NCBI RefSeq assembly: GCF_003129465.1
Contig: NZ_QFFF01000001.1
Coordinates: 2,031,501-2,095,500, forward strand
Length of the DNA stretch: 64,000 nt
Origin: Sphingosinicella humi
GTDB lineage: Bacteria; Pseudomonadota; Alphaproteobacteria; Sphingomonadales; Sphingomonadaceae
Direction: 5' to 3'
Shown here: positions 40,110-64,000 of the stretch, one piece after another
Numbering within the stretch: the stretch's first letter is position 1
Layout of the letters: each line of letters starts with the position of its first letter
Notes under the pieces: generated by a model
What the model was told of the DNA's origin: nothing
Databases searched by the model: none
Seen by the model: the letters and a program-made list of their open reading frames with translations, nothing else
Position numbers and translations under genes: made by a program

Positions 40110-40241
40110 ATGACGCACCAGGGACATTTTGCTGACCCGGCTTCGACGGCGACTCGTTCGCGGTCCGGTTTCGTGCAGCTTTCCCTGCGCTGGTGGCGCT
40201 CGACTGCCCTTCGATGGCGGGCCGCGCCGACGTTCGACTAG
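40110..40241 (+). CDS. trpL: Trp leader peptide of the aroF-trpEG operon
   Basis: This short frame encodes 43 residues starting MTHQGHFADPA. The control region LSLRWWRSTALRWRAAPTFD has two adjacent Trp codons (40191-40196) and a third at 40215. AAGGTGG precedes ATG 40110; a GTG at 40173 would give a 22-residue version without a ribosome site. The third Trp codon overlaps GGCGGGCC (40216-40223), which can pair with GGCCCGCC (40272-40279) to block the terminator. This is the structure of a tryptophan attenuator. The rest of the 340-base gap upstream holds the promoter, not clearly resolved. Confidence 0.78.
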   Translation: MTHQGHFADPASTATRSRSGFVQLSLRWWRSTALRWRAAPTFD

Positions 40242-40272
40242 ATCTCCCTTCACGAGATCGACTGCGAAATTG

Positions 40273-40298
40273 GCCCGCCTCCTGGCGGGCTTTTTTTT
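40273..40298 (+). terminator. Trp attenuator terminator
   Basis: GCCCGCC (40273-40279) and GGCGGGC (40284-40290) form a 7-bp stem with a 4-base loop, followed by eight T. It lies 24 bases before the aroF start. An alternative pairing of 40272-40279 with 40216-40223 gives the antiterminator. GATCTC/GAGATC (40241-40259) forms a small intervening hairpin. Confidence 0.85.
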
Positions 40299-40321
40299 AC
40301 CCTGACGAAAGCTGTGTTGTC

Positions 40322-41338
40322 ATGATCATCACATTGAAGCCGGACACGCCGTCCGAGGCAGCCGACGCCTTGCTCGCGCGGATCTCAGAAACAGGATTGA
40401 GGGCGCTCCACATGCCGGGCGACGACCGGGTGGTGCTGGGCGCGCTGGGCGAGGCGTCTGTCGTCGCCGAGCTTGCGCTCGAAAGCCACCCCCATGTGGC
40501 TTCGGTGGAGCCGATCCTCGCCCCTTACAAGCTGGTGAGCCGCGAGCTTCATCCGCACGACACCGTGATTCCCCTTGGCAGGAGCGCGATCGGCGGCCGG
40601 GACTTTTGCGTGATCGCCGGTCCCTGTGCCGTCGAGACGCCCGATCAGCTCCGGGCGACCGCGCGGGCGGTCAAGAATGGCGGCGCGGTCGCCCTGAGGG
40701 CAGGCGCCTATAAGCCGAGGACGAGCCCCTACAGCTTCCAGGGCCATGGCCCCGACGGGCTTCAGCTCCTCTCGGAAGCGGGCCGGGAGATCGGCCTTCC
40801 CATCGTCACCGAGGTAATGGAGATCGCCGACGTCGACCTGGTCGCCGCCCATGCCGACATCGTCCAGGTGGGGGCGCGCAACATGCAGAATTTCGCGCTG
40901 CTGAGGGCGCTGGGGCGTATCGGAAAACCCATTCTTCTGAAGCGCGGCTTCGCGGCGCGCATCGAGGATCTGCTGCTCGCCGCCGAATATATACTCGCCG
41001 AAGGCAACGATCAGGTCATTCTGTGCGAGCGCGGCATACGCACCTTCGAGACGGCGATCCGCAATACGCTCGACCTCGCCGCCGTGCCCTACATAAAGGC
41101 AAGAACGCACCTGCCCGTCCTGGTCGATCCGTCGCACGGCACGGGTATCCGCGACCTCGTCCTCCCCATGTCCCTCGCCGCGGCGGCCTGCGGCGCGGAC
41201 GGGCTTCTCGTGGAGGTTCATGAAGATCCAGCAGTCGCCTGGTCCGACGGAGAGCAGTCGCTCTACCCGGCGCAGTTCGACGCGCTGATGGCGAAGCTTG
41301 GCGCGTTGCTGCCGATATTGGGAAGACGGCTCGCATGA
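40322..41338 (+). CDS. aroF: DAHP synthase, class I (AroF type)
   Basis: This enzyme catalyses the first step of the shikimate pathway, phosphoenolpyruvate plus erythrose 4-phosphate to DAHP. The 338-residue product has a small N-terminal ferredoxin-like/ACT-like regulatory domain (MIITLKPDTPSEAADALLAR) as in Thermotoga-type DAHP synthases. A TIM barrel follows with GRDFCVIAGPCAVET, LRAGAYKPRTSPYSFQG and VDPSHGTGIRDLV. The start is ATG 40322. It lies behind a Trp attenuator and is coupled to trpE (ATGA overlap), so it acts as the Trp-responsive isozyme. A second, class II DAHP synthase is encoded at 49972-51234. Confidence 0.93.
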   Translation: MIITLKPDTPSEAADALLARISETGLRALHMPGDDRVVLGALGEASVVAELALESHPHVASVEPILAPYKLVSRELHPHDTVIPLGRSAIGGRDFCVIAGPCAVETPDQLRATARAVKNGGAVALRAGAYKPRTSPYSFQGHGPDGLQLLSEAGREIGLPIVTEVMEIADVDLVAAHADIVQVGARNMQNFALLRALGRIGKPILLKRGFAARIEDLLLAAEYILAEGNDQVILCERGIRTFETAIRNTLDLAAVPYIKARTHLPVLVDPSHGTGIRDLVLPMSLAAAACGADGLLVEVHEDPAVAWSDGEQSLYPAQFDALMAKLGALLPILGRRLA

Positions 41339-42891
41339 GGGCGCCGGAGCTTCAACTGGGCGAGGCGGTCGCGCTTCGGCGGATCCTGTCGGTAAGCCGC
41401 GATCCGCTGAGCCTCTACGCGGCGCTGACCGATCGTGGCCAGCGCACCGACACATTGCTCCTGGAGGAGGCGGGCGGCAGGGCCTTCATCGTCGACAAGG
41501 CTGCCGTTCGCGCGGAGTGCAGGGGCCGCGATGTCACGCTCACCGCCCTCTCGAGCGGCGGACGGCGCGTCCTCGAGGTCGCGGCAGCGCAGCTCGGGCG
41601 ATATGTCGCGGCTTCGGCCGAGGATATCCTCACCCTCAGCTTTCCGAAGACCGACGAAGAGGGGGCCGAAGCCCGCCTGATCGCCCCGTCACCCTTCGAT
41701 GCGCTGCGAAGCCTGGTGCAGAACCTCAAGAGTTTCTCCGCAGACGAGCCGTTCGCCCTCTTCACGGCCGGCATCGTTTCCTTCGATCATGTGGACATGT
41801 TCGAAAGCCTGCCGGCGGGGCAGGAGGATGTCCTTGGCTTCCCCGACTACCAATTCTGGCTCGCCGAATCCCTGATCGTCGTGGAGCCGCACGCGTCGGT
41901 GCGGCTCATCTGCACCGCTTTCGGATCGGATTGCCGCCGGGAAGCGGAGCAGGCCCATCATGAGGCGGCCCAGCGGCTCGCACGGCTCGTCCAAAGGTGT
42001 GAGGCCGCCACCAGGAGCGTCGAGGTCCCGGCCACGGCCGAGGCGCCCGCCGAGGTGGCGGTCGACATCGACGACGAGAGCTTCGCATCGCTCGTCGACC
42101 GTCTCAAGCGCAACATCGAGGCGGGAGATGTCTATCAGATCGTGCCGTCCCGCACCTTCGAGATGCCCTGCAGCGATCCCGTTACGGCCTTCGCCAAGCA
42201 GCGCGGGCTGGACCCGAGTCCCTACATGTTCTTCGTCTCGGGTCCCGACCAAATTATCTTCGGCGCGTCTCCCGAAAGTGCCGTCCGCGTCCATCGCGAC
42301 GAAGGCTGGCCGATCGTCGAGGTAAAGCCGATCGCCGGCACGCGTGCGCGCGGCGAGACTCCCGACCTGGACGACCGTCTTGAGGCCGATCTTCGGCTCG
42401 ACGAGAAGGAGACGGCCGAGCATATGATGCTGGTCGACCTCGCCCGCAACGACGTCGCTCGGATCAGCATCCCCGGCACCCGGCGGGTTGCATCGCTCCT
42501 CAAGGTGGAGCGCTTTGCGCGGGTCATGCATCTGGTCTCGCTAGTGCGCGGCAATCTTGCGATCGGCTTCGACGCCTTCCACGCCCTCCAGGCTTGCCTC
42601 AATGTCGGCACGCTCACCGGCGCGCCCAAGCTCAAGGCCATGGAGTTGCTTAGGCAATGGGAAGCGACAAGGCGCGGCCCCTATGGCGGCGCGGTCGGTT
42701 GGGTATCCGGCGCCGGCGAGATGGACAGCGCCGTCATCATCCGATCCGCCGTCGTCCGCGATGGACAGGCACGGGTGCGGGCGGGCGCCGGCGTGGTGCA
42801 TGATTCCGATCCCGTGCGCGAGGCCGATGAAACGAGGCGCAAGGCGTCTGCCGTCCTGATCGCGCTGGCATCGGCGGAGGCGGCGCGATGA
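41335..42891 (+). CDS. trpE: Anthranilate synthase component I
   Basis: TrpE converts chorismate and ammonia to anthranilate. The 518-residue product has the chorismate-binding core (DVYQIVPSRTFEMP, PIAGTRARGETPDLD, LVDLARNDVARI, GAPKLKAMELL). Its N-terminal region follows the E. coli-type TrpE rather than the usual alphaproteobacterial type. The Trp-feedback motif LLES-x10-S reads LLEE with Ala at the second Ser position, suggesting reduced or lost inhibition by Trp. It is coupled by ATGA overlaps to aroF and trpG. Confidence 0.93.
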   Translation: MRAPELQLGEAVALRRILSVSRDPLSLYAALTDRGQRTDTLLLEEAGGRAFIVDKAAVRAECRGRDVTLTALSSGGRRVLEVAAAQLGRYVAASAEDILTLSFPKTDEEGAEARLIAPSPFDALRSLVQNLKSFSADEPFALFTAGIVSFDHVDMFESLPAGQEDVLGFPDYQFWLAESLIVVEPHASVRLICTAFGSDCRREAEQAHHEAAQRLARLVQRCEAATRSVEVPATAEAPAEVAVDIDDESFASLVDRLKRNIEAGDVYQIVPSRTFEMPCSDPVTAFAKQRGLDPSPYMFFVSGPDQIIFGASPESAVRVHRDEGWPIVEVKPIAGTRARGETPDLDDRLEADLRLDEKETAEHMMLVDLARNDVARISIPGTRRVASLLKVERFARVMHLVSLVRGNLAIGFDAFHALQACLNVGTLTGAPKLKAMELLRQWEATRRGPYGGAVGWVSGAGEMDSAVIIRSAVVRDGQARVRAGAGVVHDSDPVREADETRRKASAVLIALASAEAAR

Positions 42892-43493
42892 AGCCCCAGA
42901 TCCTCCTCGTCGATCATCTCGACAGCTTCAGCTTCAACCTGGCCGAGTCCTTCGAACGAATGGGGCGCCGCGTGCAGGTGATGAGGAGCCATGTCGAGGC
43001 GGGCCGCGCCTTCGACGTGGCGATGCGCAACGAGGCGATCATCGTCCTCTCGCCCGGTCCCGGCCGGCCGGCGGATGCCGGCTGCTACCTGGAGTTGATC
43101 GGCCTCGCACGGGGCCGTCTCCCGCTGGTCGGCATTTGCCTCGGCCATCAGGCTATCGTCGAGGAGGCCGGGGGCGCCGTCCGCGGCGCCCCCGCGATCG
43201 TGCACGGCAAGGCCTCGGTCCTTCATCATGACTCGGAGGGGCCCTTCCTGGGGTTGGAAAGCCCGCTTCGTGTCGGACGCTACCACTCGCTGTGCACGCC
43301 CGACGTGCCGGAGCGATTCCAGGTACATGCCGAGCTCGACGGCATGGCGATGGCGATCAGCGACCCCGAGGCGCTGCAGGTCGGGCTCCAATTCCACCCG
43401 GAATCGATCCTCACGCCGCTCGGCGACCGCATACTCGCCAACATATTGGCGAGCTGCGATCGCTGGGGTCGTCAGACGGCGGCCAGCGCCTGA
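42888..43493 (+). CDS. trpG: Anthranilate synthase glutamine amidotransferase
   Basis: TrpG supplies ammonia from glutamine to TrpE. The 201-residue class I amidotransferase has LVDHLDSFSFNLA, IVLSPGPGRPADAG, the nucleophile in VGICLGHQAI and the His-Glu pair in LQFHPESILTP. No trpD fusion is present. It is last in the aroF-trpE-trpG operon, and its 3' end overlaps convergent metY by 22 bases. trpD, trpC, trpF, trpB and trpA are absent from the window. Confidence 0.93.
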   Translation: MKPQILLVDHLDSFSFNLAESFERMGRRVQVMRSHVEAGRAFDVAMRNEAIIVLSPGPGRPADAGCYLELIGLARGRLPLVGICLGHQAIVEEAGGAVRGAPAIVHGKASVLHHDSEGPFLGLESPLRVGRYHSLCTPDVPERFQVHAELDGMAMAISDPEALQVGLQFHPESILTPLGDRILANILASCDRWGRQTAASA

Positions 43494-44743
43494 TCGATGT
43501 CGGCGATGATGTCGTCGACATGTTCGATGCCGATCGACAGGCGCACGAGATCTTCCGAGACGCCCGCGCGGGCCAGCTCTTCCGGGTTGAGCTGACGGTG
43601 CGTCGTCGAGGCCGGATGGCAGGCGAGCGACTTGGCATCGCCGATATTGACGAGCCGCAGGATCATCTGGAGCCCGTCGATGAACTTGCCGCCGGCTTCC
43701 TTCCCGCCCTTGATGCCGAAGCTCAGGATGCCCGAGCCCTTGCCCTTGGTGATCTTGCGCGCGACCGCATTGAACTTGCTGTCGGGAAGCGCGGCATAGC
43801 TGACCCATTCGACCTTGGGATGGGCCTGGAGATGCTGGGCGACCTTGAGCGCGTTCTCGCAGTGCCGCTCCATCCTGAGGCCCAGCGTCTCCAGCCCCTG
43901 AAGGATCAGGAAGGCGCTGTGCGGCGCGAGCGCGGCGCCCATGTTGCGAAGCGGCGCCACCCGGGCGCGTCCGATGAACGCGGCCGGCCCCAGCGCCTCG
44001 GTATAGACGACGCCGTGATAGGAGGGATCGGGCTCGTTTAGGATAGGGAAGCGGGCCTTGTTGGCGACCCAGTCGAACTTGCCGCTGTCGACGATCATGC
44101 CGCCCACGGTGGTGCCATGGCCACCGATATATTTGGTGAGGGAGTGGACGACGATGTCGGCTCCGAAATCGAAGGGGCGGCACAGGAAGGGCGTCGCCAC
44201 CGTATTGTCGACGATGACGGGCACGCCGTGGCGATGAGCGATCTCGGCGATGCGCTCGATGTCGACGACGTTGCCGGCCGGGTTGCCGATCGATTCGAGG
44301 AACACGGCCCGGGTGCGCTCGTCGATCAGGGCCTCCAGCCCCTCATAGTCGTCGAAGGCCGCCATGCGCACTTCGATGCCCTGGCGGGGGAAGGCGTGCA
44401 TGAAGAGGTTGTAGGTGCCGCCGTAGAGCTGGGAGATCGACACGATATTGTCGCCGGCCCCCGCGATCGTCTGGATCGCGTAGGTGATCGCCGCCATGCC
44501 GGAAGCGAGGCCGAGCGCTGCGATCCCCCCTTCCATCTCCGCCACCCGCGCCTCGAGCACGGCGGTGGTCGGGTTCATGATGCGCGTATAGATGTTGCCG
44601 GTGACCTTGAGGTCGAACAGGTCGGCGCCATGCTGCGTGTCGTCGAACGTATAGGACGTCGTCTGGTAGATCGGCACCGCCGCCGACCGGGTCGTGGGAT
44701 CCGACGAATAGCCATGGTGCAGGGCAACGGACTCGAGCTTCAT
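43472..44743 (-). CDS. metY: O-acetylhomoserine sulfhydrylase
   Basis: This PLP enzyme makes homocysteine (or methionine) from O-acetylhomoserine and sulphide (or methanethiol). The 423-residue product has the Cys/Met metabolism family fold: TTSYTFDDTQHGADLF, YTRIMNPTTAVLE, DNTVATPFLCRPF and the PLP lysine in HSLTKYIGGHGT. The length and GLETLGLRMERHCENA are typical of MetY. AAGGAG precedes the start. It links the aspartate-family cluster to methionine. No SAM riboswitch or Met leader was found in the 80 bases upstream. Confidence 0.92.
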   Translation of the reverse strand: MKLESVALHHGYSSDPTTRSAAVPIYQTTSYTFDDTQHGADLFDLKVTGNIYTRIMNPTTAVLEARVAEMEGGIAALGLASGMAAITYAIQTIAGAGDNIVSISQLYGGTYNLFMHAFPRQGIEVRMAAFDDYEGLEALIDERTRAVFLESIGNPAGNVVDIERIAEIAHRHGVPVIVDNTVATPFLCRPFDFGADIVVHSLTKYIGGHGTTVGGMIVDSGKFDWVANKARFPILNEPDPSYHGVVYTEALGPAAFIGRARVAPLRNMGAALAPHSAFLILQGLETLGLRMERHCENALKVAQHLQAHPKVEWVSYAALPDSKFNAVARKITKGKGSGILSFGIKGGKEAGGKFIDGLQMILRLVNIGDAKSLACHPASTTHRQLNPEELARAGVSEDLVRLSIGIEHVDDIIADIDQALAAV

Positions 44744-44823: not shown

Positions 44824-45684
44824 TCAGGCCGCGAGCAGATCGGCCTCCTCGATGCTACAGGGGCTGAGGTCTGGCGAACGGTCCAGCTCTTCGTAAAGCG
44901 CGGACAGATCGTTCCTGAGCACCAGCTTCAGTACGTCCTCGAAGCGGTCGATCACGAAGTAGCTGAGCTGGAATGAGTCGGTCCGGTAACCCGTTCTCAG
45001 GACCCGCCTCAGATCGAAATTCAGCCGGTGCGGTTTCGCGCTTTCGAGCGAATAGTGCGATTCGCCGAAGCTCGACAGGATGCCGGCGCCGTAGATCTTG
45101 AACGCGCCGTTCTCGCGGGCCAGCCCGAACTCGACGGTGTACCAGTAGAGACGGGCGAGGCGATGGAGGGCGCCAAGCTCGACCGCCTCGAGGCCCAGAT
45201 GGCCGAGCGCCTGCATGAAGTCGGCGACGTCGGGCTGGGCGAGGAGCGGCACGTGGCCGAAGACGTCGTGGAAGACGTCCGGCTCCTCGAGATAATCGAG
45301 CTGGTCCGCGGCGCGGATGAAGTTTCCGGCCGGAAAACGGCGTTCGCTCAAATGCCGGAAGAATACGTCATCGGGAACGAGGCCCGGCACGGCGACGACC
45401 GTCCATCCGGTGCGGCGATGGAGCTTGTCGTTCAGCTCGTCGAAATTGGGAACGCCGGGGCGCGAGAGGTGGAGCACGTCGAGGCCCTGGCCGAATGCCT
45501 CGACGGCGCGGCCGTGGAGCAGGGTCTGCTGGCGGGCGAAGAGGGTGTCCCACACCCAATGGTCCTCCGCCGTCAGCTCGTCCCAGCGCTGGGGCACCGT
45601 CCAGTCCTCCGCCGCGCCAGTAGGGGGCGTCGGCGAGGCGAGGGCGCCGTGCCTTTCTCGTTGATGATTATCATTCTGCAACAT
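44824..45684 (-). CDS. phhA: Phenylalanine-4-hydroxylase
   Basis: This iron- and pterin-dependent enzyme converts Phe to Tyr. The 286-residue product has the bacterial short form without a regulatory domain. Iron ligands are visible: two His in FHDVFGHVPLL and Glu in YWYTVEFGL. GGAA precedes the start at 45684. Upstream lies an attenuator with Phe/Tyr codons. PhhA is usually catabolic, but with no tyrA in the window and such a leader it is probably used to make Tyr here. Confidence 0.92.
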   Translation of the reverse strand: MLQNDNHQRERHGALASPTPPTGAAEDWTVPQRWDELTAEDHWVWDTLFARQQTLLHGRAVEAFGQGLDVLHLSRPGVPNFDELNDKLHRRTGWTVVAVPGLVPDDVFFRHLSERRFPAGNFIRAADQLDYLEEPDVFHDVFGHVPLLAQPDVADFMQALGHLGLEAVELGALHRLARLYWYTVEFGLARENGAFKIYGAGILSSFGESHYSLESAKPHRLNFDLRRVLRTGYRTDSFQLSYFVIDRFEDVLKLVLRNDLSALYEELDRSPDLSPCSIEEADLLAA

Positions 45685-45707: not shown

Positions 45708-45739
45708 AAAAAACCCCGCCTGGAGGACCGGGCGGGGTT
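45708..45739 (-). terminator. Phe/Tyr attenuator terminator of phhA
   Basis: On the minus strand AACCCCGCC... is seen as the complement of GGCGGGGTT (45731-45739) and AACCCCGCC (45712-45720), a 9-bp stem with a 10-base loop. The A-run at 45708-45713 is a T-tract on that strand. The minus-strand antiterminator is 45781-45787 pairing with 45729-45735 (7 bp). Confidence 0.83.
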
Positions 45740-45769: not shown

Positions 45770-45883
45770 TCAGCCGATCTCCGCCCGTCGGGTGAGATAA
45801 TAGGTAAAGCAAATGACCGACGCCGCGGCAGCGGCATCGCGCGATGCGAGGGCCTCAAGGCCAAAGGTCACACGGCGGGTCAT
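45770..45883 (-). CDS. Phe/Tyr leader peptide of phhA
   Basis: This 37-residue frame starts MTRRVTFGLEALAS and ends SVICFTYYLTRRAEIG. The control codons Phe-Thr-Tyr-Tyr lie at 45797-45808, just before the antiterminator segment at 45781-45787, as in classical attenuation. The ribosome site is weak. The composition (Phe then two adjacent Tyr) differs from neighbouring coding density and fits sensing of charged tRNA-Phe and tRNA-Tyr. Confidence 0.68.
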   Translation of the reverse strand: MTRRVTFGLEALASRDAAAAASVICFTYYLTRRAEIG

Positions 45884-45891
45884 CGGCAAGG

Positions 45892-45946: not shown

Positions 45947-47041
45947 TCAGGCTCTACGGTCGAGGAAATGCTCGACCTCCTCTAGCTCTACACTCATGTC
46001 GACGAAGGCCTGGCCGATGCCGCGGGTCAGGATGAAGGGAAGCCGTCCCCCCTCGCGCTTCTTGTCGTGCATCATATGGGCGACGAGTCTCCTGCCGTCG
46101 GCGGCGATGCCGATATCGCCGAGCCTGGTGGGGAGTCCGGTGGCGGCGAGGTGGGCCTGGACTCGCTCCGCGTCCGCGGACGGACAAAGGCGCCGTTCCA
46201 CCGAGAATTGGAAGGCGCAGACGATCCCGGCGGCCACCGCTTCGCCATGGAGGAGGCGATCGGAATAGCCCGTTTCCGCCTCGAGCGCGTGACCGAAGGT
46301 GTGGCCGAGATTGAGAAGGGCGCGGCGGCCGAGCGTCTCGCGCTCGTCTTCGGCGACGATCCGGGCCTTGCCGGCGACGGCGGCCGCGATCGCGTGGTGG
46401 AGCAGGCCGGGTTCGCCTCCGAGCAGCGCCGGGCCATTTTCCTCCAGCCAGGCGAACAGGGGCGCATCCTCGATCAGCGCATATTTGACGATCTCGGCAT
46501 AGCCGGCGCGCAGCTGGCGCGCATCGAGGGTGGCCAACACCGTCGGGTCGATCAGCACCAGCGAGGGCTGGTGGAAGGCGCCGACCAGATTCTTTCCGGC
46601 CGGCACGTTGATCGCGGTCTTGCCGCCGACGGAGCTGTCGACCTGGGCGAGGAGGCTCGTCGGGATCTGGACGAAACCGCAGCCGCGATTGACGATGGCG
46701 GCGGCGAAGCCGGCGAGATCGCCGATGACGCCGCCGCCGAAGGCGACGATATGGTCGCGCCGCTCGACGCCGAGCGCGAGCAGCCGGTCGACGAGGTGCG
46801 CGAGCGTCGCCCAGCTCTTGCTCGCCTCGCCGGGCGGAAGGATGATGGGCGCGGCCTGGACGGGTCCCAGCCCGCGGCTCAGCCTTTCGCCCTGGGCCGC
46901 CCAGACGGTTTCGTCGCTGACGACGATCAGGCGGCCGTCGCGAGCGAAGCCCGCCAAGTGATCGGCGGCTCGATCGAGCAGGCCTTCCTCGACGAGGATA
47001 TCGTAGCTGCGTTGGCCGAGGGCGACGTTGAGGATGGTCAT
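45947..47041 (-). CDS. aroB: 3-dehydroquinate synthase
   Basis: AroB converts DAHP to 3-dehydroquinate, the second shikimate step, using NAD and a divalent metal. The 364-residue product has [52 protein letters not shown] and [12 protein letters not shown] with metal ligands. The start at 47041 lies in the ATGA overlap with aroC, at the end of a six-gene operon. No aroK is adjacent, unlike the common aroKB pair. Confidence 0.95.
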
Positions 47042-48096
47042 CCGCACTGAGCCCGGTGGAGGAGCTTCTGGTCGGCCAGGACGAACGCCATCATCGCCTC
47101 GACGACCGGCGCGCCGCGGATGCCTACGCAGGGATCGTGGCGACCCTTGGTGCTGATCTCCGTTTCCGCGCCCGTCCGGTCGATCGTGGGCACGGGAGTC
47201 AGGATCGAGCTCGTCGGTTTGAACGCGACGCGGACGACCACCGGCTGCCCGGTCGAAATCCCGCCCGCTATTCCCCCCGCATGATTGGCGAGGAAGGCGG
47301 GGCCGGCACGCATCGGATCGGCATTGTCTTCGCCGCGGGCCCGCGCCGCCGCGAAGCCGTCGCCGATCTCCACACCCTTCACCGCATTGATCGACATGCA
47401 GGCGGCGGCCAGCTCGCTGTCGAGCTTGGCATAGACGGGGGCGCCCCAACCGGGAGGAACGCCGGTGGCAACGCATTCGACCACGGCGCCGACCGAGGAT
47501 CCCGCCTTGCGGACATCGTCGATGAGCTTTTCCCAGCGCTCGGCGGCGGCCGGGTCGGGACAGAAGAAGGGGTTGGCCTCGATGGCGGAGTCATCGAAGG
47601 CGGAACGGTCGATCGCGTCCCCGCCGATCTCGACGACATAGGCGCGGATCGTGACCTCGGGGACGATGAGCCGCGCGACCGCTCCGGCCGCGACGCGCGA
47701 GGCGGTTTCCCGCGCCGAGCTGCGCCCGCCGCCGCGCCAGTCGCGCAGCCCGTATTTGGCGTCATAGGCATAGTCGGCATGGCCCGGACGATAGGCGGCG
47801 GCGATCTCGCCATAATCCTTGGAACGCTGGTCGACATTGTCGATTGCGAGGCTGATCGGCGTGCCGGTCGTGCGGCCCTCGAACAGGCCGGAGAGGATAC
47901 GGACCTGGTCGGGCTCGCGGCGCTGGGTGGTGAAGCGCGAGGCGCCGGGGCGCCGCCGGTCGAGCCAGGGCTGGATGTCGGACTCGGACAGCTCGAGCCC
48001 CGGGGGGCAGCCGTCGACAATCGCGCCGATGGCTGGCCCGTGGCTCTCGCCCCAGGTCATGAAGCGCAGGGCGCGGCCGAACATGTTGTAGCTCAT
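47038..48096 (-). CDS. aroC: Chorismate synthase
   Basis: AroC forms chorismate from EPSP using reduced FMN. The 352-residue product shows [51 protein letters not shown] and the C-terminal [15 protein letters not shown], all family signatures. It is coupled by ATGA overlaps to pheA upstream and aroB downstream. Confidence 0.95.
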
Positions 48097-48650
48097 GCAC
48101 TGTCTCCCGGCCGACCGACGACCCGAAATCGGGTGGCGTTGTCGGGACGGTCATGCACATCCCGGCGCAAGATCGCCAGACCATAGGTCCTGGCCGCCGC
48201 CGAGGAGGCGAGCACCGCGGTTTGAAGGTCGGTTCCGGTCGCCAGCTTTTCCGCCGCGATGGCCGTGTTGGCGGCGGCGGCGGTCGCGAGCTTCAGCGAG
48301 CGCAGCGTCTCGGCGCATTGGGCGAGCGCCATCGGGTGGCTGATCGCTCGGATAATCGCCTCCAGCCGGGCTCCGGGAAGGGATAGAAGATGGAGGCGGA
48401 TGGGAAGCGAGTGTTCCGAAACGGTGGCGAGAGGGCTCTGGGCCAAGACGCGATGCGCTTCCTCAACCGGGCCGGCGCTGCTGTTTTCGATGGGAAGAAT
48501 ACCGAGATCAGCTTCGCCGGCCTCCACTGCAGCGGCTACGGCGGCGAAGCTGGGTTTCGCGATGGGCCAAAAGGCGGGCAAAAAGGCGAGGCAAGCCTCG
48601 TGGCTGAAGGCGCCGGGCAGCCCCTGATAGGCGACAGTTGGACGGCTCAT
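48093..48650 (-). CDS. pheA: Prephenate dehydratase lacking the ACT domain
   Basis: This enzyme converts prephenate to phenylpyruvate, the Phe branch step. The 185-residue product has [46 protein letters not shown] and the active-site TRF in [10 protein letters not shown]. It stops right there; family members usually continue with an ACT domain of about 80-90 residues that binds Phe. The N-terminal chorismate mutase is encoded separately. Both ends are coupled by ATGA overlaps. Loss of the ACT domain implies no Phe feedback. Confidence 0.9.
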
Positions 48651-49957: not shown

Positions 49958-49971
49958 AAGCTGGCCTCCGT

Positions 49972-51959: not shown

Positions 51960-52028
51960 TGTTCATGTCCGATCGCCGTCGCCGCGACCCCAAGGCGCCA
52001 CAAGGCGCAAGGGTACCGACGGAAGGCG

Positions 52029-52109: not shown

Positions 52110-52127
52110 ATAATAGGGAGCGGCCAT
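52077..52127 (-). CDS. Tyr/Phe-rich leader peptide of the aro operon
   Basis: A 16-residue frame reads MAAPYYFSSFTGRYAY, with four Tyr and two Phe. Its stop overlaps the inner hairpin arm. It lies about 120 bases before the chorismate mutase gene on the same strand. No clear ribosome site is seen on this strand, which lowers confidence. The chance of six aromatics in sixteen residues exactly upstream of a Phe/Tyr operon is low. Confidence 0.5.
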   Translation of the reverse strand: MAAPYYFSSFTGRYAY

Positions 52128-52492: not shown

Positions 52493-52624
52493 ATGATGAT
52501 GCCGGTTACATTCCAGTTTGCTTCCGACCGCACCGCCGCGGCGCGCGTCGATGCGTGCGCGATCGCCGCCATCACCCTCATTATTACGACGACGACCACC
52601 CGTTCGCGCGGGGGATGCGGCTGA
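52493..52624 (+). CDS. thrL: Thr/Ile leader peptide of the thrABC operon
   Basis: This 43-residue frame starts MMMPVTFQF with AGAGGA 8 bases upstream. The control segment AAITLIITTTTTRSRGGCG has three Ile and six Thr codons packed at 52571-52600, the same logic as E. coli thrL. It is followed directly by GCGGGGGATGCGG (52608-52620), which can pair with 52657-52668 and block the terminator. Confidence 0.83.
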   Translation: MMMPVTFQFASDRTAAARVDACAIAAITLIITTTTTRSRGGCG

Positions 52625-52653: not shown

Positions 52654-52686
52654 AACCCGCTCCCCGCCAGGCGAGCGGGTTTTTTT
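52654..52686 (+). terminator. Thr attenuator terminator
   Basis: AACCCGCTC (52654-52662) pairs with GAGCGGGTT (52673-52681), followed by a T-run to 52686. It is 48 bases before the thrA start and 30 bases after the leader stop. The antiterminator partner is at 52608-52620. Confidence 0.86.
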
Positions 52687-54495: not shown

Positions 54496-54505
54496 GGAGG
54501 ATGTG

Positions 54506-56875: not shown

Positions 56876-56998
56876 ATGCTGCTGAATTCGAAGCCTTGCA
56901 TTGAAGCCAATACGGAAGCGCTCCGCGCGGCCGCGTCCATTCTCGTCACCGTACTGCTTATTAGCTGCCATAGGGGAGCGGCGTACGGCTCTGTGTGA
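56876..56998 (+). CDS. ilvL: Ile/Leu/Val leader peptide of the ilvCGM-leu operon
   Basis: This 40-residue frame starts [12 protein letters not shown] with AGGA about 7 bases upstream. The control segment [20 protein letters not shown] has Ile-Leu-Val-Thr-Val-Leu-Leu-Ile codons at 56939-56962. It is followed by GGGAGCGG (56974-56981), which can pair with CCGCTCCC (57033-57040) to prevent termination. The logic matches E. coli ilvL. Confidence 0.82.
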
Positions 56999-57028: not shown

Positions 57029-57059
57029 CCCCCCGCTCCCACCGGAGCGGGGGGTTTTT
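57029..57059 (+). terminator. Ilv attenuator terminator
   Basis: CCCCCCGCTCC (57029-57039) pairs with GGAGCGGGGGG (57044-57054), an 11-bp stem with a 4-base loop, followed by TTTTT. It lies 23 bases before the ilvC start. The antiterminator partner is 56974-56981. Confidence 0.88.
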
Positions 57060-57081: not shown

Positions 57082-58095
57082 ATGGAAATGATCTACACGG
57101 AACAGCATGCCAATCCCGCCGCACTCAAGGGCGGGCGGATCGCCATCGTCGGATATGGCAGCCAGGGCCGCGCCCACGCCCGCAATCTGCGGGACAGCGG
57201 CTTCGACGTGGTCGTCGGCGCCCGCGCCGGCGGCGGGGCCGAGCGCAAGGCAAAGGCGGATGGCTTTCGCGTGGTCTCGCCGGCCGAGGCGGCGAAGGAA
57301 GCCGACCTGGTTGCATTGCTGACGCCCGACATGAGCCATCGCTCGGTCTATGCTCATGAGATCGCGCCCAACCTCAAGGCCGAAGCTGCGCTCCTCGTCG
57401 CCCATGGCTTTTCGGTTCATTATGGCGAGATCGTTCCCCGCAAGGACATCGACGTCGTCCTCGTCGCTCCCAAGGGGCCCGGCGATCTCGTCCGCCGCGA
57501 ATATGAGATCGGGCGCGGCGTCCCTTGTCTTTTTGCCGTTCAGCAGGATGCGAGCGCAGCGGCGCGCGAGCGGGCGCTGGCCTATGCCTCCGGCATCGGC
57601 GGAACGCTCGCCGGCGCGATCGAGACCAGCTTCGCGGAAGAAACGGAAACCGACCTGTTCGGCGAGCAGGCAGTGCTGTGCGGGGGCGCGAGCGAGCTCA
57701 TCACGGCCGGCTACGAGACATTGGTGGAGGCCGGCTACAAGCCCGAGGTCGCCTATTTCGAGTGCCTCCACGAGCTGAAGCTGATCGTCGACCTCCTCTA
57801 TGAGGGTGGGCTCGCCAAGATGCACGAGTTCGTGTCCGAGACGGCCAAATATGGTGATCTCGTCTCGGGCCCGCGGGTCGTGAACGGCGAGACCCGCGAG
57901 CGCATGCGCGAAGTGCTGCGCGACATCCAGACCGGCAAGTTCGCTCAGGAATGGATCTTCGAGAACGAGAGCGGCAAGCAGAATTACGACGCGATGCTTG
58001 CGGCCGATCTCGACCAGCCGATCGAGAAGGTGGGGGCGCGGCTGCGCCAGCACATGGCATGGCTGCAGTCCAAGCCCGACGCGAAGGCGGCCTGA
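57082..58095 (+). CDS. ilvC: Ketol-acid reductoisomerase
   Basis: IlvC converts acetohydroxy acids to dihydroxy acids with NADPH and Mg. The 337-residue class I product has the Rossmann motif [20 protein letters not shown]. The metal ligands lie in [17 protein letters not shown] and in the following [24 protein letters not shown] lies 8 bases before ATG 57082. It is first in the ilvC-ilvG-ilvM-leuABC operon behind an Ilv attenuator. Confidence 0.95.
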
Positions 58096-58097
58096 CC

Positions 58098-59792
58098 ATG
58101 AGACCTGCCTCTCACGCCCAGCCGCTCAATGTCCGCGAGCCCGTCAGCGGGGCGCGCCTCGTGGTGGAGGCGCTGGAGCGCGAGGGCGTAAGGCACATCT
58201 TCGGCTACCCCGGCGGCGCGATCATGCCTGTTTATGACGCGCTGCCGGGCTCGAGCCTGACGCACATACTGGTCCGCCACGAGCAGGCGGCGGCGCTCGC
58301 GGCCGACGCCTATGGCCGCGTGACGGGGGAACCCGGCGTCTGTCTTGCCACCTCCGGGCCGGGCGCGACCAACCTCGTCACCGGCATCGCCAACGCCTTC
58401 ATGGACAGCGTGCCGATGGTGGCGATCACCGGACAGGTCGCGGCGCCGCTGATCGGAACCGATGCGTTCCAGGAAGTCGATATCTTCGGCATCACCCTGC
58501 CGATCGTGAAGCACAGCTATATCGTCCGGCGGACGGAAGATATTCCCTCGGTCTTCGCCGAAGCCTTCGCACTGGCGCGGTCGGGAAGGCCGGGGCCTGT
58601 GCTGATCGACCTGCCGAAGGACGTGGCCATGACGGCGGCGGTCCCGCAGGAGGCGGAGCCCGTCGCGCTTGAGGCACCTGCACTCGATGAAGTTGCGCTG
58701 GCGAAGGCGAACGCCCTCATCGCCCAGGCGGAATCGCCGATCCTCTATTTCGGCGGCGGCATAGCCATTGCCCGGGCGGAGCGTGCCTTGCGCGGCTTCG
58801 TCGAGAGGAGCGCCATCCCGTCCGTCGCGACGCTGAAGGGCTTGGGCGGTGTCCCGACCGATGCCCCGAGCTTTCTCGGCATGCTCGGCATGCACGGCAC
58901 GCGGGTGGCGAACGTCGCCATCGACAATTGCGATCTGCTGATCTGCGTCGGCGCACGTTTCGACGACCGGGCGACGGGAAAGCTCGATACGTTCGCGCCC
59001 CGCGCCAAGGTCATCCACATAGACGGCGACCCGGCCGAGATCGGCAAGCTGCGGCGCGCGGAAGTCGGTATCGCCGGGGACGTGACGGCGATCCTCGACC
59101 GGCTTACGGCCATCCCGGCCGATGCCGAGGCCTGGAAGCAGCAATGCGCCGAGCAAAAGCGCATGTGGGCCATGTCGTACGACGCGCCCGGCAATGGCGT
59201 CTATGCGCCGGCGCTCCTGAAGCAATTGTCGGAAGCCGCCGGCGACCGGGCAATCTTCACCTGCGACGTCGGCCAGCACCAGATGTGGGTGGCGCAGCAT
59301 TGCCGCTTCGCACGTCCCCAGGCGCATCTCACCAGCGCCGGGCTCGGTACGATGGGCTACGGGATTCCGGCCGGCATCGGCGCGCTCATCGCCGATCCGG
59401 AAGCCACCGTCATCACCGTGTCGGGCGACGGCTCGATCATGATGAACATCCACGAGCTGGCGACCCTGAGGCGCTACCGCCTGCCGCTGAAGATCGTGCT
59501 CCTCGACAACTCTCAGCTCGGCATGGTCCGCCAGTGGCAGGAGCTGTTCTACGAGGAGAATTTCTCGGAGATCGACCTCACCGACAATCCCGATTTCGCT
59601 GATGTGGCGCGAGCCTTCGGGATCGAGGCCTTCACGGTCGATCACCGCTCCGACGTGCCCGGCGCGATCCGGCGGCTTCTCGAAACGGCGGGGCCGATCC
59701 TGTGCCACGTCCGGATCGACCCGCGCGAGAATGTCTGGCCGCTCGTGCCCCCCAACCATTCCAATGTTCAGATGATGGAGAAGACCCGATGA
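58098..59792 (+). CDS. ilvG: Acetolactate synthase large subunit (IlvG-like)
   Basis: This ThDP enzyme condenses pyruvate with pyruvate or 2-oxobutyrate. The 564-residue product has the catalytic Glu in RHEQAAALAADAYGR, the FAD region and the ThDP motif GDGSIMMNIHELATL. The last part, PLKIVLLDNSQLGMVRQWQE, is typical of AHAS. With an IlvM-like partner immediately downstream it resembles isozyme II. It is 2 bases after ilvC and coupled to ilvM. Confidence 0.93.
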   Translation: MRPASHAQPLNVREPVSGARLVVEALEREGVRHIFGYPGGAIMPVYDALPGSSLTHILVRHEQAAALAADAYGRVTGEPGVCLATSGPGATNLVTGIANAFMDSVPMVAITGQVAAPLIGTDAFQEVDIFGITLPIVKHSYIVRRTEDIPSVFAEAFALARSGRPGPVLIDLPKDVAMTAAVPQEAEPVALEAPALDEVALAKANALIAQAESPILYFGGGIAIARAERALRGFVERSAIPSVATLKGLGGVPTDAPSFLGMLGMHGTRVANVAIDNCDLLICVGARFDDRATGKLDTFAPRAKVIHIDGDPAEIGKLRRAEVGIAGDVTAILDRLTAIPADAEAWKQQCAEQKRMWAMSYDAPGNGVYAPALLKQLSEAAGDRAIFTCDVGQHQMWVAQHCRFARPQAHLTSAGLGTMGYGIPAGIGALIADPEATVITVSGDGSIMMNIHELATLRRYRLPLKIVLLDNSQLGMVRQWQELFYEENFSEIDLTDNPDFADVARAFGIEAFTVDHRSDVPGAIRRLLETAGPILCHVRIDPRENVWPLVPPNHSNVQMMEKTR

Positions 59793-60049
59793 ACGACAAG
59801 ATCCGGATCGATTTCGCGATGGCGGAAGGCGCCGTTCTTCGTGTGCTCGGCCTCATCGAGCGGCGCGGCTATCGCCTGTGCGCCATCGGCATGACCGAGC
59901 ATGAGGATGGCGAGACGGCTTCGATGGAGCTGGAGATCGCCGCGCGCGACGCCGGACGCGACCTGGCCGTGCTCGACCGTCAGATCCGCCGCCTCGTCGG
60001 CATTCGAGCCGTCGCCCGCTTTCCAATGCCGATGGCGAGTGCGGCATGA
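59789..60049 (+). CDS. ilvM: Acetolactate synthase small subunit (IlvM-like)
   Basis: This 86-residue single-ACT-domain subunit (MNDKIRIDFAMAEGAVLRVL and LIERRGYRLCAIGMTEH) matches the length of E. coli IlvM, 87 residues, rather than IlvH at about 160. E. coli isozyme II with IlvM is insensitive to valine, so weak Val feedback is expected. It is coupled by ATGA overlap to ilvG and to leuA. Confidence 0.82.
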   Translation: MNDKIRIDFAMAEGAVLRVLGLIERRGYRLCAIGMTEHEDGETASMELEIAARDAGRDLAVLDRQIRRLVGIRAVARFPMPMASAA

Positions 60050-61629
60050 TGGAACAGGTTCGCATCTTCGACACCACCCTGCGCGACGGCGAGCAGGCGC
60101 CCGGCTTCTCGATGAACGAGGACGCCAAGCTGCGTGTGGCGCGGGCGCTTGCCGCGCTGAAGGTCGACGTGATCGAGGCCGGCTTCGCGGCGGCCTCGCC
60201 CGGCGACGCCCGCGCGATCGCCAGGATCGCCGAGCAGGTCGAGGGACCCGTCATCTGTTCGCTCGCGCGGACCACCGAAGCGGATATTCGCGCGGCGGGC
60301 GCGGCGCTGGCCAACGCCCCGCGCAAGCGCATCCATGTCTTCCTCGGTACCAGCCCGATTCACCGGGAGGCGAAGCTTGGTCTCACGCCGGCCGAGGTGC
60401 TGGAGAAGATCCGCACCTCCGTCGCCCTTGCCCGCGAATATGCGGATGATGTCGAATTTTCGGCCGAAGACGCGATCCGCACCGAGCGGGACTTCCTGGT
60501 CGAGGCGCTGTCGGTCGCCGCGGCGAGCGGGGCGATGACGCTCAACGTGCCTGACACCGTGGGCTACACCACGCCGGACGAGATTTACGAGCTGTTCCGG
60601 CATCTCGTGGCCCATGTCGACCGGCCGCGGGAAGCCGTCTTCTCCGCCCATTGCCATGACGATCTCGGCATGGCGGTCGCCAATTCGCTGGCGGCGGTGC
60701 GGGGTGGGGCGCGGCAGGTCGAGTGCGCCGTCAACGGCATTGGCGAGCGCGCCGGCAATTGCGCGTTGGAAGATGTGGTGATGGCGCTCAAGACCCGCGC
60801 CGATGTGTTCGGCGTTTCGACCGGCATCGACACCACCCGGCTCCTGGCCGCCAGCCGCACCCTGGCGCAGGCCACGAACAGTCCGCCGCCGCGCAACAAG
60901 TCGATCGTCGGCGCCAATGCCTTCGCGCATGAATCGGGCATTCACCAGCACGGTATCCTCAAGAACCGCGAAACCTATGAGATCATGAAGCCCGAGGATA
61001 TCGGGCTCGCGACCCACGGCATCGTGCTCGGCAAGCATTCGGGCCGTCATGCGCTCGTCGCCCGCGCGAAGGCGCTGGGCTTCGCGCTGGAGGGCGAGGC
61101 GCTGGACCGGGCCTTCGCCGCTTTCAAGGAGGTCGCGGACGAGGTCGGCATCGTCGATACGGCGCGGCTGATGGCGATCCTCGCCGGGAGCGGCCGGGAG
61201 GGCCGTCAGTCCTTCTGGAGCCTGAAGAAGATCGACATAAGGTCGCCCGCTTCGGCCAAGGCCTGGCCGGTGGCGAGGGTGGAGCTCGAGCATGGCGAGC
61301 GGGGGCTGGTGACGGACCTTGCCTCGGCGCCCGGCGCGCTCGATGCCGCCTTCGCGGCGGTCAGCCAGATCATGGGCGTGCCCGCGCGCGTCGACAAGAT
61401 CGAGCTTCAATATATCGCCGCCGATGCGGAAGAGCCCGCCTCGGACGGGCAGGGCGCCAACGTCCTCATCGAGATCACATTGGAGGTCGAGGGCGAGCTC
61501 TTCTCCGGCCGCGCGCGGGCACGCGACATCCTCCCCTGCTGCCTCGCCGCCTACATCGACGCGGCCGCCAATGCCGAGGCGGTCTCGCGTTTCCGCCAAA
61601 CCCCCTCCGAACGGGCTGAAGCCGCATGA
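60046..61629 (+). CDS. leuA: 2-isopropylmalate synthase
   Basis: LeuA starts the leucine branch from 2-oxoisovalerate and acetyl-CoA. The 527-residue product has IFDTTLRDGEQAPGFSM, SAHCHDDLGMAVANSLAAVR, GERAGNCALEDVVMALK and HESGIHQHGILKN. A C-terminal allosteric domain remains (VLIEITLEVEGELFSGRARA), so Leu feedback is probably kept, unlike several neighbours. It is coupled to ilvM and leuB by overlaps. Confidence 0.95.
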   Translation: MMEQVRIFDTTLRDGEQAPGFSMNEDAKLRVARALAALKVDVIEAGFAAASPGDARAIARIAEQVEGPVICSLARTTEADIRAAGAALANAPRKRIHVFLGTSPIHREAKLGLTPAEVLEKIRTSVALAREYADDVEFSAEDAIRTERDFLVEALSVAAASGAMTLNVPDTVGYTTPDEIYELFRHLVAHVDRPREAVFSAHCHDDLGMAVANSLAAVRGGARQVECAVNGIGERAGNCALEDVVMALKTRADVFGVSTGIDTTRLLAASRTLAQATNSPPPRNKSIVGANAFAHESGIHQHGILKNRETYEIMKPEDIGLATHGIVLGKHSGRHALVARAKALGFALEGEALDRAFAAFKEVADEVGIVDTARLMAILAGSGREGRQSFWSLKKIDIRSPASAKAWPVARVELEHGERGLVTDLASAPGALDAAFAAVSQIMGVPARVDKIELQYIAADAEEPASDGQGANVLIEITLEVEGELFSGRARARDILPCCLAAYIDAAANAEAVSRFRQTPSERAEAA

Positions 61630-62738
61630 ACAAGGATAAGGACATGAAGATCGTGATTTTGCCCGGCGACGGCGTCGGGCCGGAGGTTTCGGCCGAGGCG
61701 GTGAAGTGCCTGGAGCTGCTGTCGAGCCATTGCGGGCTTGGCCTTCATTTCGAGACCCATGCCTTCGGCGGGGCGGCCATCGACGCGACGGGTTCGCCCC
61801 TTCCGGACAGCACGCTTGCGGCGTGCCAGGGGGCGGACGCGGTGCTGTTGGGCGCCGTCGGCGGGCCGCGCTGGGACGGGCGGACTGAAATGCCCGAGGC
61901 GGGACTGCTGAAGCTCCGGCGCGAACTTGGCCTCTTCGCCAATCTGCGTCCGGCCCGCGTCATCCAGGGCCTGGAGGCGTTGTCGCCGCTCCGCGCGGAT
62001 CTCGCCGAGGGAGCCGACGTGCTGGTCGTGCGGGAGCTGACCGGGGGAGTCTATTTCGGCGACCGAGTTCTGGAGGATGATGCGGCCTCGGACCTGTGCG
62101 TCTATTCCCGCGCGGAGATCGAGCGCATCGCCCATGTCGCCTTCCAGTCCGCCCGGCGGCGCGGTCGCAAGGTGACGTCGGTCGACAAGGCCAATGTGAT
62201 GGCGACGTCGAAGCTGTGGCGCCGGACGGTTGTGGAGGTGGCGGAGCACTATCCCGACGTGGCGCTCGACCATATGTATGTCGACGCCGCGGCCATGGCG
62301 CTCGTCACCAACCCCCGCCGGTTCGACGTTATCCTCACCGAAAATATGTTCGGCGACATATTGTCGGACGAGCTGTCGGTGATCGGCGGCTCGATCGGGC
62401 TGCTGGGCTCGGCGAGCGTCGGCGCCTCGGGTCCCGGCCTGTTCGAGCCGATCCACGGCTCCGCCCCGGACATCGCCGGGCTGGACATCGTCAATCCTGC
62501 GGGCGCCATCACCAGCGCGGCGATGATGCTGGAGCAGCTCGGGATGGCCGACATGGGGCGCTTTCTCGCCGAGGCGCTGGGCAAGACGATGCTTGGCGGC
62601 TGCCGCACGGCGGATATGGGCGGCAGTGCGCGCTGCTCCGAATTCGGCGAGGCGGTGCGCGAACATCTGCGGCGGCGGCTCGTGCGCTATGACGCCCATC
62701 TGGAGCTGGTGACGATGAACCGGGGCTGCTGCGCATGA
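61626..62738 (+). CDS. leuB: 3-isopropylmalate dehydrogenase
   Basis: LeuB oxidises 3-isopropylmalate. The 370-residue product has [52 protein letters not shown] and [20 protein letters not shown], all family signatures. It is coupled by ATGA overlaps to leuA and leuC. Confidence 0.95.
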
Positions 62739-64000
62739 GCGAGCGGCGTCGGACTCTCTACGAGAAGATCTGGGACGCCCATGTGGTCGAGCGGCGCGAG
62801 GACGGCACCTGCCTCATCTATATCGATCGCCATCTCGTCCACGAGGTGACTTCGCCGCAGGCGTTCGAGGGGCTGCGGATCGCCGGCCGCAAGGTGCGCC
62901 GACCGGACCTGACCCTTGCCGTGCCCGACCATAATGTGCCGACGACCGCGCGCGTGGGTGCGAACGGGGCGCGCCTGCCGATCGCGGATCCGGCCAGCGC
63001 CGGGCAGCTGGCGGCGCTCGAGTCGAATGTCGCGGAGTTCGGCGTGCCGTATATCGCCGATACGGCGGTGGAGCAGGGCATCGTCCATGTCGTCGGGCCG
63101 GAGCAGGGCTTCACCCTGCCGGGCACGACCGTCGTCTGCGGCGACAGCCACACGGCGGCGCACGGCGCCCTGGGCGCGCTCGCCTTCGGTATCGGCACCA
63201 GCGAGGTCGAGCATGTGCTCGCCACGCAGACGTTACTGCTGAAGCAGTCCAAGTCGATGGAGGTCCGGGTCGAGGGCAGTCTCGGCTTCGGCGTCTCGCC
63301 CAAGGACGTGGTTCTCGCCGTTATCGGTCGACTCGGCGCCGCCGGCGGCACCGGCTATGTCATCGAATATCGCGGCGACACGTTCGAGGCGATGTCGATC
63401 GAAGGCCGCCTGACGGTCGCCAACATGTCGATCGAGGCGGGCGCCCGCTCCGGTCTGTTCGCGCCGGACGAGAAGACCTACGCTTACCTCAAGGGCCGGC
63501 CGATGGCGCCGGCAGGCGAGGAGTGGGAGAAGAAGCTCGCCTGGTGGCGCACGCTCCCGACCGACGAAGGCGCGCGCTTCGACGCTGCCATCCGGCTCGA
63601 CGCGCAAGACATCGCGCCGAACGTCACCTGGGGCACCAGCCCCGAGGACGTGGTCGCGATCACCGGCACCATTCCCGATCCCGAGAGCTTCGCCGATCCC
63701 GCCAAGCAGGCGGCCGCCCGCAAGTCGCTCGACTATATGGGCCTGGCGCCGGGCACCGCCCTGCAGGACGTCGCCGTCCAGCACATCTTCATCGGCAGCT
63801 GCACCAACAGCCGCATCGAGGATTTGCGCGCCGCCGCCGACGTAGTCCGCGGCCGGAAGATCAGCGATGGCATAAAACAGGCGCTGATCGTGCCCGGCTC
63901 GGGACTGGTGAAGCGCCAGGCCGAGGCCGAAGGGCTCGACCGCATATTCGTCGAGGCGGGCTTCCAGTGGCGGGAGCCCGGCTGCTCGATGTGCCTCGCG
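62735..64000 (+). CDS. leuC: 3-isopropylmalate dehydratase large subunit (partial)
   Basis: LeuC isomerises 2- to 3-isopropylmalate with LeuD using a [4Fe-4S] cluster. The 422 residues present begin [18 protein letters not shown]. They include [20 protein letters not shown] and the cluster cysteines in [13 protein letters not shown] and PGCSMCLA, where the window ends. About 45 residues are missing. leuD is expected just beyond. The start ATG 62735 lies in the leuB stop overlap. Confidence 0.95.

What the first reader, a model, noticed from the sequence alone, without database searches (positions are those of the whole stretch)
40110..64000. Amino-acid biosynthesis supercluster controlled by up to five leader-peptide attenuators
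Within 24 kb lie aroF-trpE-trpG, metY, phhA, a six-gene aro/phe operon, thrABC and ilvCGM-leuABC. Five of these units start with a peptide rich in codons for the pathway product, and four also have a U-tract terminator and matching antiterminator. Attenuators are known singly in enterobacteria and Xanthomonadales. Having five next to one another in a sphingomonad-type genome looks like a coherent, co-evolved module.
Basis: partly seen in the sequence, partly recalled or inferred. Interest (0 to 1): 0.93.

Follow-up and report, generated by a model that had tools for sequence, protein, structure and literature searches.

The report
Five amino-acid-sensing leaders, one unusual
A sphingomonad bacterium carries most of its aromatic, threonine and branched-chain amino-acid genes side by side, each group preceded by a tiny peptide gene that probably senses the amino acid being made; four look like textbook attenuators, one of them on an unexpected gene (phenylalanine hydroxylase, read through tyrosine), and the fifth is built differently.

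Summary
The named operons are present and five start with a leader ORF rich in cognate codons (Trp; Tyr on phhA; Phe/Tyr on the aro operon; Thr/Ile; Ile/Leu/Val). Four have a GC hairpin plus U-tract. Counting the window, leaders persist in 26 of 27 thrA, 18/18 window-type ilvC, 20/20 aroF, 22/23 phhA and 18/18 genus cm upstream regions: classical ribosome-mediated attenuators for four heads.

Three things go further. (1) phhA carries a Tyr attenuator, and this genome has no detectable prephenate dehydrogenase, so PhhA looks like its tyrosine-synthesis enzyme. (2) The aro leader has no U-tract in the window; it has a near-invariant SF-x-GRYA hairpin under nucleotide-level constraint (TTT in 22 of 22 leaders, 12 TTT/177 TTC in 14 nearby genes) and a downstream complement. 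Its output step is unresolved. (3) In the one genus genome with this AK-HSD but no ThrC match, Thr/Ile codons are replaced by Met codons.

"One co-evolved module" is partly supported: leaders follow their operon; all five heads lie within 25 kb in 1 of 11 genomes having all five.

The parts
40110..40241 (+). trpL leader peptide ORF (..LRWWRSTALRW..)
   Evidence: W-rich leader in 20 of 20 aroF loci used, own included
40272..40298 (+). trp terminator hairpin + T8
   Evidence: terminator called in 19 of 20 aroF loci
40322..43493 (+). aroF (class I-beta DAHP synthase) - trpE - trpG
43472..44743 (-). metY, O-acetylhomoserine sulfhydrylase, about 80 bases behind phhA on the same strand; no Met-rich leader or terminator found upstream
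44824..45684 (-). phhA phenylalanine 4-monooxygenase
   Evidence: TIGR01267 over cut-off
45708..45739 (-). phhA terminator hairpin + T6
45770..45883 (-). phhA Tyr leader ORF (..VICFTYYLTRRAEIG*)
   Evidence: Tyr leader in 22 of 23 phhA upstream regions, own included, the other masked by N
45947..51959 (-). six-gene aro/phe operon: CM 51231-51959, class II DAHPS 49972-51234, aroA 48647-49957, PDT (185 aa, no ACT domain) 48093-48650, aroC 47038-48096, aroB 45947-47041
52025..52047 (-). downstream element complementary to the aro leader (CGTAAAAACTCGAGCTAAACGCC)
   Evidence: combined p 9e-5 over 22 related leaders, 8 of 22 below 0.05 singly; control segment 0.89
52067..52092 (-). aro leader hairpin CCGATACGCC/GGCGTATCGG overlapping the GRYA codons and the stop; no U-tract
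52077..52166 (-). aro-operon Phe/Tyr leader ORF (MRTGQDIRRPSSLMAAPYYFSSFTGRYAY*)
   Evidence: core in 18 of 18 genus cm loci, own included, plus L019 and three loci of two other genera
52493..52624 (+). thrL leader ORF (..ITLIITTTTTRSRGGCG*)
52656..52686 (+). thr terminator hairpin + T7
   Evidence: terminator in 27 of 27 thrA upstream regions
52735..56760 (+). AK-HSD fusion without ACT domains (52735-54495), thrB, thrC
56876..56998 (+). ilvL leader ORF (..[11 protein letters not shown]..)
   Evidence: (18 of 18)
57029..57059 (+). ilv terminator hairpin + T5
   Evidence: (18 of 18)
57082..64000 (+). ilvC-ilvG-ilvM-leuA-leuB-leuC (leuC runs off the window; leuD-like ORF and ilvD follow)

Best explanation
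[quoted passage not shown] For trp, thr, ilv-leu and phhA, a ribosome that reads the Trp, Thr/Ile, Ile/Leu/Val or Tyr codons without delay lets the GC hairpin and U-tract form and transcription stops; a stalled ribosome lets a strand at the leader's end pair with the terminator's 5' arm and the operon is read (anatomy and conservation shown; switching inferred). phhA is controlled by tyrosine because, without TyrA, hydroxylation of Phe is the likely tyrosine-synthesis step (inferred from absence of TyrA). The aro/phe operon is controlled through Phe/Tyr codons by a different layout, without an intrinsic terminator: a hairpin spanning the leader's GRYA-stop codons and a pairing between the GCTCGTTTA region and a downstream element. 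Rho-dependent termination after the leader is my best guess for its output; it is not shown.
For: Counts, own genome included: thrA 26/27 leaders and 27/27 terminators (three pairs of loci look like one record seen twice), window-type ilvC 18/18 and 18/18, aroF 20/20 and 19/20, phhA terminators 19/23 by script with four more hairpins followed by interrupted T-tracts; phhA leaders 22/23 after reading ten sequences. Leaders were not found before the second-type AK-HSD (0 of 5), the own second ilvC or 18 of 19 other-type ilvC loci fetched (L067 ambiguous). TyrA (PF02153) has no match in 19 of 26 genus genomes, G000 among them, while 14 of 14 control genomes ring. The aro leader core is in 18 of 18 genus cm loci; TTT at the conserved Phe in 22 of 22 leaders against 12 TTT/177 TTC in 14 window genes (the finder asked for TTTA, but no locus failed it); hairpin pairs 95% standard with modest covariation; downstream complement longer than shuffled. 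G151: AK-HSD without ThrC match, leader AAMMMMAAMRMRGGAG with terminator kept.
Against: No transcript data. Antiterminator pairing is only modestly better than shuffled leader sequence (mean z -1.08 thr, -1.77 ilv, -0.73 trp, -1.96 phh). For the aro leader, start-site accessibility did not differ between modelled states (mean difference 0.008 over 22 loci); the C>G skew after the hairpin (19 of 22) is also seen near other leaders, e.g. 19 of 20 trp and 20 of 22 phh in a differently placed 45-base window, so it does not single out Rho. The energy-based test of the long-range pairing was weak (mean z -0.78 over 20); in the helix test 14 of 22 loci were not below 0.05 singly, and the loci are related. 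A T5 follows the hairpin region in L135 and a T4 in L019, so a terminator there is not excluded. phhA of L019 has no Tyr leader, and five genus genomes with TyrA keep the leader.
Confidence: 0.82

Rival explanations
1. The aro leader acts at translation: leader ribosome position decides whether the CM start site is sequestered.
For: No U-tract in the window; a downstream complementary element lies between leader and CM start.
Against: Folding with the leader ribosome at the codons or at the stop changed predicted start-site accessibility by only 0.008 on average over 22 loci.
Confidence: 0.25
2. The aro leader is a nascent-peptide arrest or trans-acting peptide (conserved M-x-K/N-G-Q start and SFxGRYA end) rather than a codon sensor.
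For: Both ends of the peptide are conserved in many of the 22 leaders; a leader peptide with a trans role is reported in Sinorhizobium (peTrpL, PMC7298713, start of abstract in the listing).
Against: Invariant TTT and the hairpin point to nucleotide-level constraint, which also forces GRYA.
Confidence: 0.15
3. The leaders are chance short ORFs upstream of ordinary terminators of preceding transcripts.
For: W-rich and F/Y-rich short ORFs are not rare in this GC-rich DNA.
Against: Codon runs, hairpins and spacing conserved before the same genes in relatives and not found before the paralogues scanned.
Confidence: 0.02
4. The whole neighbourhood is one selected regulatory module, inherited or transferred as a unit.
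For: Neighbouring pairs recur: aroF-phhA within 25 kb in 10 of 18, thrA-ilvC 6 of 11, cm-thrA 5 of 12 genomes holding both. G155 holds all five within about 43 kb. Of the 14 named-genome loci, seven also hold a window-type ilvC close to thrA, six divergently (L011-L014, L016, L020) and L019 in the same direction. A full-length AK-HSD fusion match in only 2 of 149 sampled family genomes, the own genome included.
Against: All five within 25 kb in 1 of 11; leaders persist in dispersed operons.
Confidence: 0.2

Closest known systems
Ribosome-mediated transcription attenuators of amino-acid operons (enterobacterial trp, thr, ilv, recalled; Caulobacter ilvBN, passage read)
   Same: Leader ORF with tandem regulatory codons, candidate antiterminator strand at leader end, GC hairpin + U-tract before the first gene
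   Different: Operon content; phhA as the controlled gene with Tyr codons; class I-beta DAHPS heads the trp operon; no Rfam match at gathering threshold
Enterobacterial pheA (Phe) leader (recalled, not fetched)
   Same: Phe-coded leader before chorismate mutase and prephenate dehydratase functions
   Different: No U-tract terminator in the window; conserved GRYA hairpin overlapping the stop codon; six-gene operon headed by CM and class II DAHPS; PDT without ACT domain
Tyrosine synthesis by phenylalanine hydroxylase (Dyella, Legionella; GapMind paper PMC7311316)
   Same: PhhA as tyrosine route where TyrA is missing (passages read)
   Different: Here phhA additionally carries a Tyr-coded attenuator; the passages read mention none
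E. coli ThrA aspartokinase-homoserine dehydrogenase (domain order recalled)
   Same: AK-HSD fusion heading thrABC behind a Thr/Ile leader
   Different: No ACT domains between AK (13-230) and HSD (from about 262)

Membership tests
Ribosome-mediated intrinsic-terminator attenuator (trp, thr, ilv, phh leaders) | Short ORF with clustered codons for the pathway product just upstream | tested here: met
Ribosome-mediated intrinsic-terminator attenuator (trp, thr, ilv, phh leaders) | GC hairpin + U-tract between leader and first gene | tested here: met
   thr 27/27, ilv 18/18, trp 19/20, phh 19/23 (+4 with interrupted T-tract)
Ribosome-mediated intrinsic-terminator attenuator (trp, thr, ilv, phh leaders) | Alternative antiterminator pairing overlapping the leader end | tested here: inconclusive
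   best strand near the leader end in most rows, mean z -0.7 to -2.0 against shuffles
Ribosome-mediated intrinsic-terminator attenuator (trp, thr, ilv, phh leaders) | Premature transcripts relieved by amino-acid starvation | not testable with these tools
   no RNA data
Ribosome-mediated intrinsic-terminator attenuator (aro leader) | Short ORF with clustered Phe/Tyr codons | tested here: met
   aromatic residues before SFxGRYA in 22 of 22 leaders, weakest in L147
Ribosome-mediated intrinsic-terminator attenuator (aro leader) | GC hairpin + U-tract | tested here: not met
   not met in the window. Of 18 genus loci the scan called a T5 only in L135 and an upstream T4 in L146, with a laxer rule, called a T4 in L019
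Rfam leader or riboswitch families | Match at gathering score | tested here: not met
   for 51900-52300
Tyr-synthetic PhhA | PhhA present and prephenate dehydrogenase family absent | tested here: met
Tyr-synthetic PhhA | phhA loss causes Tyr auxotrophy | not testable with these tools
   needs a knockout

The most novel reading that the evidence does not exclude
The aro-operon leader is a new class of aromatic-amino-acid sensing RNA, seen so far only in sphingomonads (3 of 84 genera sampled in the order). A ribosome reading Phe/Tyr codons decides between a hairpin spanning the GRYA-stop codons nested in a long-range pairing and an open downstream RNA, with output by Rho or another non-intrinsic step. 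In this lineage such RNA control has taken over from allostery: AK-HSD and PDT have no ACT domains, phhA has become a tyrosine-regulated synthesis gene, and regulatory codons are rewritten (Thr/Ile to Met in G151) when the pathway's product changes.
Probability: 0.3. Interest if true: 0.72.

Novelty: new variant of a known kind. Interest (0 to 1): 0.5.

Why it matters
It offers natural experiments on how codon-reading regulation evolves. A gene usually discussed as catabolic (phhA) appears rewired to tyrosine synthesis under a Tyr attenuator. One attenuator seems retargeted from Thr/Ile to Met where threonine synthase was not found. One leader lacks the intrinsic terminator that defines the textbook design. 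The ACT-less AK-HSD and PDT behind such leaders make 'RNA control instead of feedback inhibition' directly testable.

Tried and rejected
Translational sequestration of the CM start site: modelled, no effect. C-rich segment as a Rho signature: 19 of 22 aro leaders, but as common near the trp and phh leaders, so not diagnostic. Duplex-energy test of the long-range pairing: weak; the contiguous-helix test was stronger, but I ran it second, after seeing the matches, and the loci are related, so its combined p is not a true probability. Degenerate pattern of the aro leader in 298 family genomes: 5 genomes hit against 5 with a hit of the reversed control; G000, G164 and G168 are cm leaders, the other two I take for chance without checking. 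I then used a covariance model (5 of 396 order genomes; G055, G125 and G006 lie before cm genes of two other genera).

First scan of genus loci used the wrong orientation and was discarded; redone, where the ilvC group failed on locus names and was redone. In one search the script picked wrong ORFs for L119, L120 and L123; I read those sequences.

Dropped before counting: phhA L128-L130 (partial or small matches; 22 of 25 loci used, plus L009); aroF L169-L174 (six matches of 34-40% identity; 20 of 26 loci used); 19 other-type ilvC loci from the window-type count; five second-type AK-HSD loci from the thrA count. Other-type ilvC was scanned only where a locus had been fetched (19 loci, plus the own copy).

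Literature: in searches no listed title or abstract start described a Tyr attenuator on phhA, an ACT-less AK-HSD behind a Thr leader, or the GRYA leader. Listings are partial and the library lacks most subscription journals. Passages read: PMC1173090, PMC7311316, PMC2965389, PMC4117421; all other papers seen as listings only.
Full report
Setting. The window is G000:C1:2031501-2095500 of a 3.03-Mb genome in 4 contigs, completeness 100. One genus genome, G155, has a contig of the same length (293,297 bases) as a contig of Sphingosinicella sp. CPCC 101087, so I call the genus Sphingosinicella-like; the name is an inference.

Observation. Five head genes have a leader ORF; four have a GC hairpin with U-tract. 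metY lies about 80 bases behind phhA on the same strand; a scan found no Met-rich leader or terminator before it.

Conservation. ThrA relatives in named genomes (14 loci, Sphingosinicella, Sphingomonas, Glycocaulis, Oceanicaulis, Marinicauda and others) and 26 genus genomes gave upstream regions for each head; counts include the window; thrA 26 of 27 leaders and 27 of 27 terminators; window-type ilvC 18 of 18 and 18 of 18; aroF 20 of 20 and 19 of 20; phhA 19 of 23 terminators by script, four more with interrupted T-tracts, and 22 of 23 leaders after reading ten of the sequences (one masked by N). In the thrA set three pairs (L008/L183, L010/L184, L007/L180) look like one record seen twice. Paralogues scanned lack leaders: 0 of 5 second-type AK-HSD; other-type ilvC 18 of 19 fetched loci none, L067 ambiguous; the own second ilvC none. 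The candidate antiterminator strand sits near the leader end in most rows but beats shuffles only modestly.

Copies elsewhere. ilvC has a second copy (about 49% identical). AK-HSD has a second fusion (41%), also without ACT domains and followed by an alpha/beta-hydrolase-fold gene and a Cys/Met-metabolism PLP enzyme gene, which suggests the methionine branch. A separate aspartokinase is a third partial match. DAHPS-I, PhhA and CM gave one match each in G000.

phhA. Prephenate dehydrogenase (PF02153) has no match in 19 of 26 genus genomes, G000 among them; 14 of 14 controls ring. Tyrosine from phenylalanine is known for Dyella and Legionella (passages), whereas a 2005 review treats Phh mainly as catabolic (passages). 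A Tyr attenuator on phhA fits a synthetic role. Against: five genus genomes with TyrA (G149, G152, G154, G163, G171) keep the leader too, and phhA of L019 has none.

Aro leader. All 18 genus cm loci and L019 carry the core TCGTTTA..GGCCGGTACGCC..GGCGTGCCGG with small variations; three further loci in two other genera lie before cm genes. Aromatic residues cluster just before SFxGRYA. The conserved Phe codon is TTT in 22 of 22, while 14 window genes use 12 TTT and 177 TTC, so the constraint is on the RNA. My finder asked for TTTA, but no locus failed it. The hairpin keeps 95% standard pairs with a few compensatory changes. The segment before the hairpin finds longer complements downstream than shuffled sequence (6.45 against 5.13 bases, combined p 9e-5, 8 of 22 loci below 0.05 singly; control segment p 0.89), with different sequences matched in different loci, e.g. 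GTTTACGGG in L019, GTTTACCTG in L208, GGCTCGTTT in L144. An energy test was weak. No U-tract follows in the window; a T5 in L135 and a T4 in L019 are exceptions. The output step stays open: start-site sequestration was not supported and the C-rich skew is not specific.

Regulatory recoding. Of 13 genus genomes with the window-type AK-HSD, 12 have a ThrC match; G151 has none. There the AK-HSD (66% identical) is followed by a glutaminase gene and lies beside aroA, aroC and aroB genes (the latter two by eye), without thrBC. Its leader reads AAMMMMAAMRMRGGAG with the usual terminator. This is one genome, a lead and not a law. Thirteen of 26 genus genomes have a ThrC match, and nine show only the AK part of the ThrA query (two of them, G160 and G167, are 81 and 68% complete), so threonine auxotrophy may be common here (inference).

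Allostery. ThrA has AK 13-230 and HSD from about 262 with no ACT domain; complete relatives have similar length. PDT ends after its catalytic domain (185 aa; 5 of 5 relatives checked run 159-185 aa from match start to stop). IlvM and LeuA keep ACT and LeuA_dimer domains. That RNA control replaced feedback inhibition is inference.

Clustering. Within 25 kb: aroF-phhA 10 of 18 genomes with both, aroF-cm 8 of 17, phhA-cm 8 of 17, cm-thrA 5 of 12, thrA-ilvC 6 of 11; all five only in G000. G155 has all five within about 43 kb, G168 four within 16 kb, and G163 four within about 12 kb with its thr operon apparently cut by a contig end, so draft genomes may hide true neighbours. A full-length match to the ThrA fusion was found in 2 of 149 sampled family genomes, G000 included.

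Verdict. Four classical attenuators, conserved, in an unusually compact cluster; one leader of a variant design; phhA an unexpected attenuated gene.

Noticed in passing
L186 / G151:C1:559364-561034: AK-HSD leader in which Thr/Ile codons are replaced by Met codons while the terminator is kept; no thrBC behind it and no ThrC match in that genome.
   Followed up: partly
L139-L143 and others: In several genus genomes the chorismate mutase match lies in an open frame of about 580-650 aa that reaches the class II DAHP synthase, as if fused; in the window the two genes overlap.
   Followed up: no
window 52735-54495 and L021 6068-7828: Two AK-HSD fusions of 586 aa in one genome, neither with an ACT domain by Pfam; the second is followed by an alpha/beta-hydrolase-fold gene and a Cys/Met PLP-enzyme gene, as if for the Met branch.
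   Followed up: partly
window 48093-48650: Prephenate dehydratase of 185 aa without ACT domain; five relatives checked are as short.
   Followed up: partly
L019 (Sphingomonas daechungensis): thrA and aroA matches are split into pieces in different frames; sequencing error or decay not decided.
   Followed up: no
genus genomes: Nine of 26 genus genomes show only aspartokinase and no homoserine dehydrogenase match; possible Thr/Met auxotrophs.
   Followed up: partly
window 19672-22561: PhyR-type response regulator gene (21566-22561) with a PhyK-like histidine kinase on the other strand.
   Followed up: no
window 34438-37304: Heavy-metal P-type ATPase followed by a MerR regulator.
   Followed up: no
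cm leaders: The start of the leader peptide (M-x-K/N-G-Q) is also conserved in many of the loci, unexplained.
   Followed up: no
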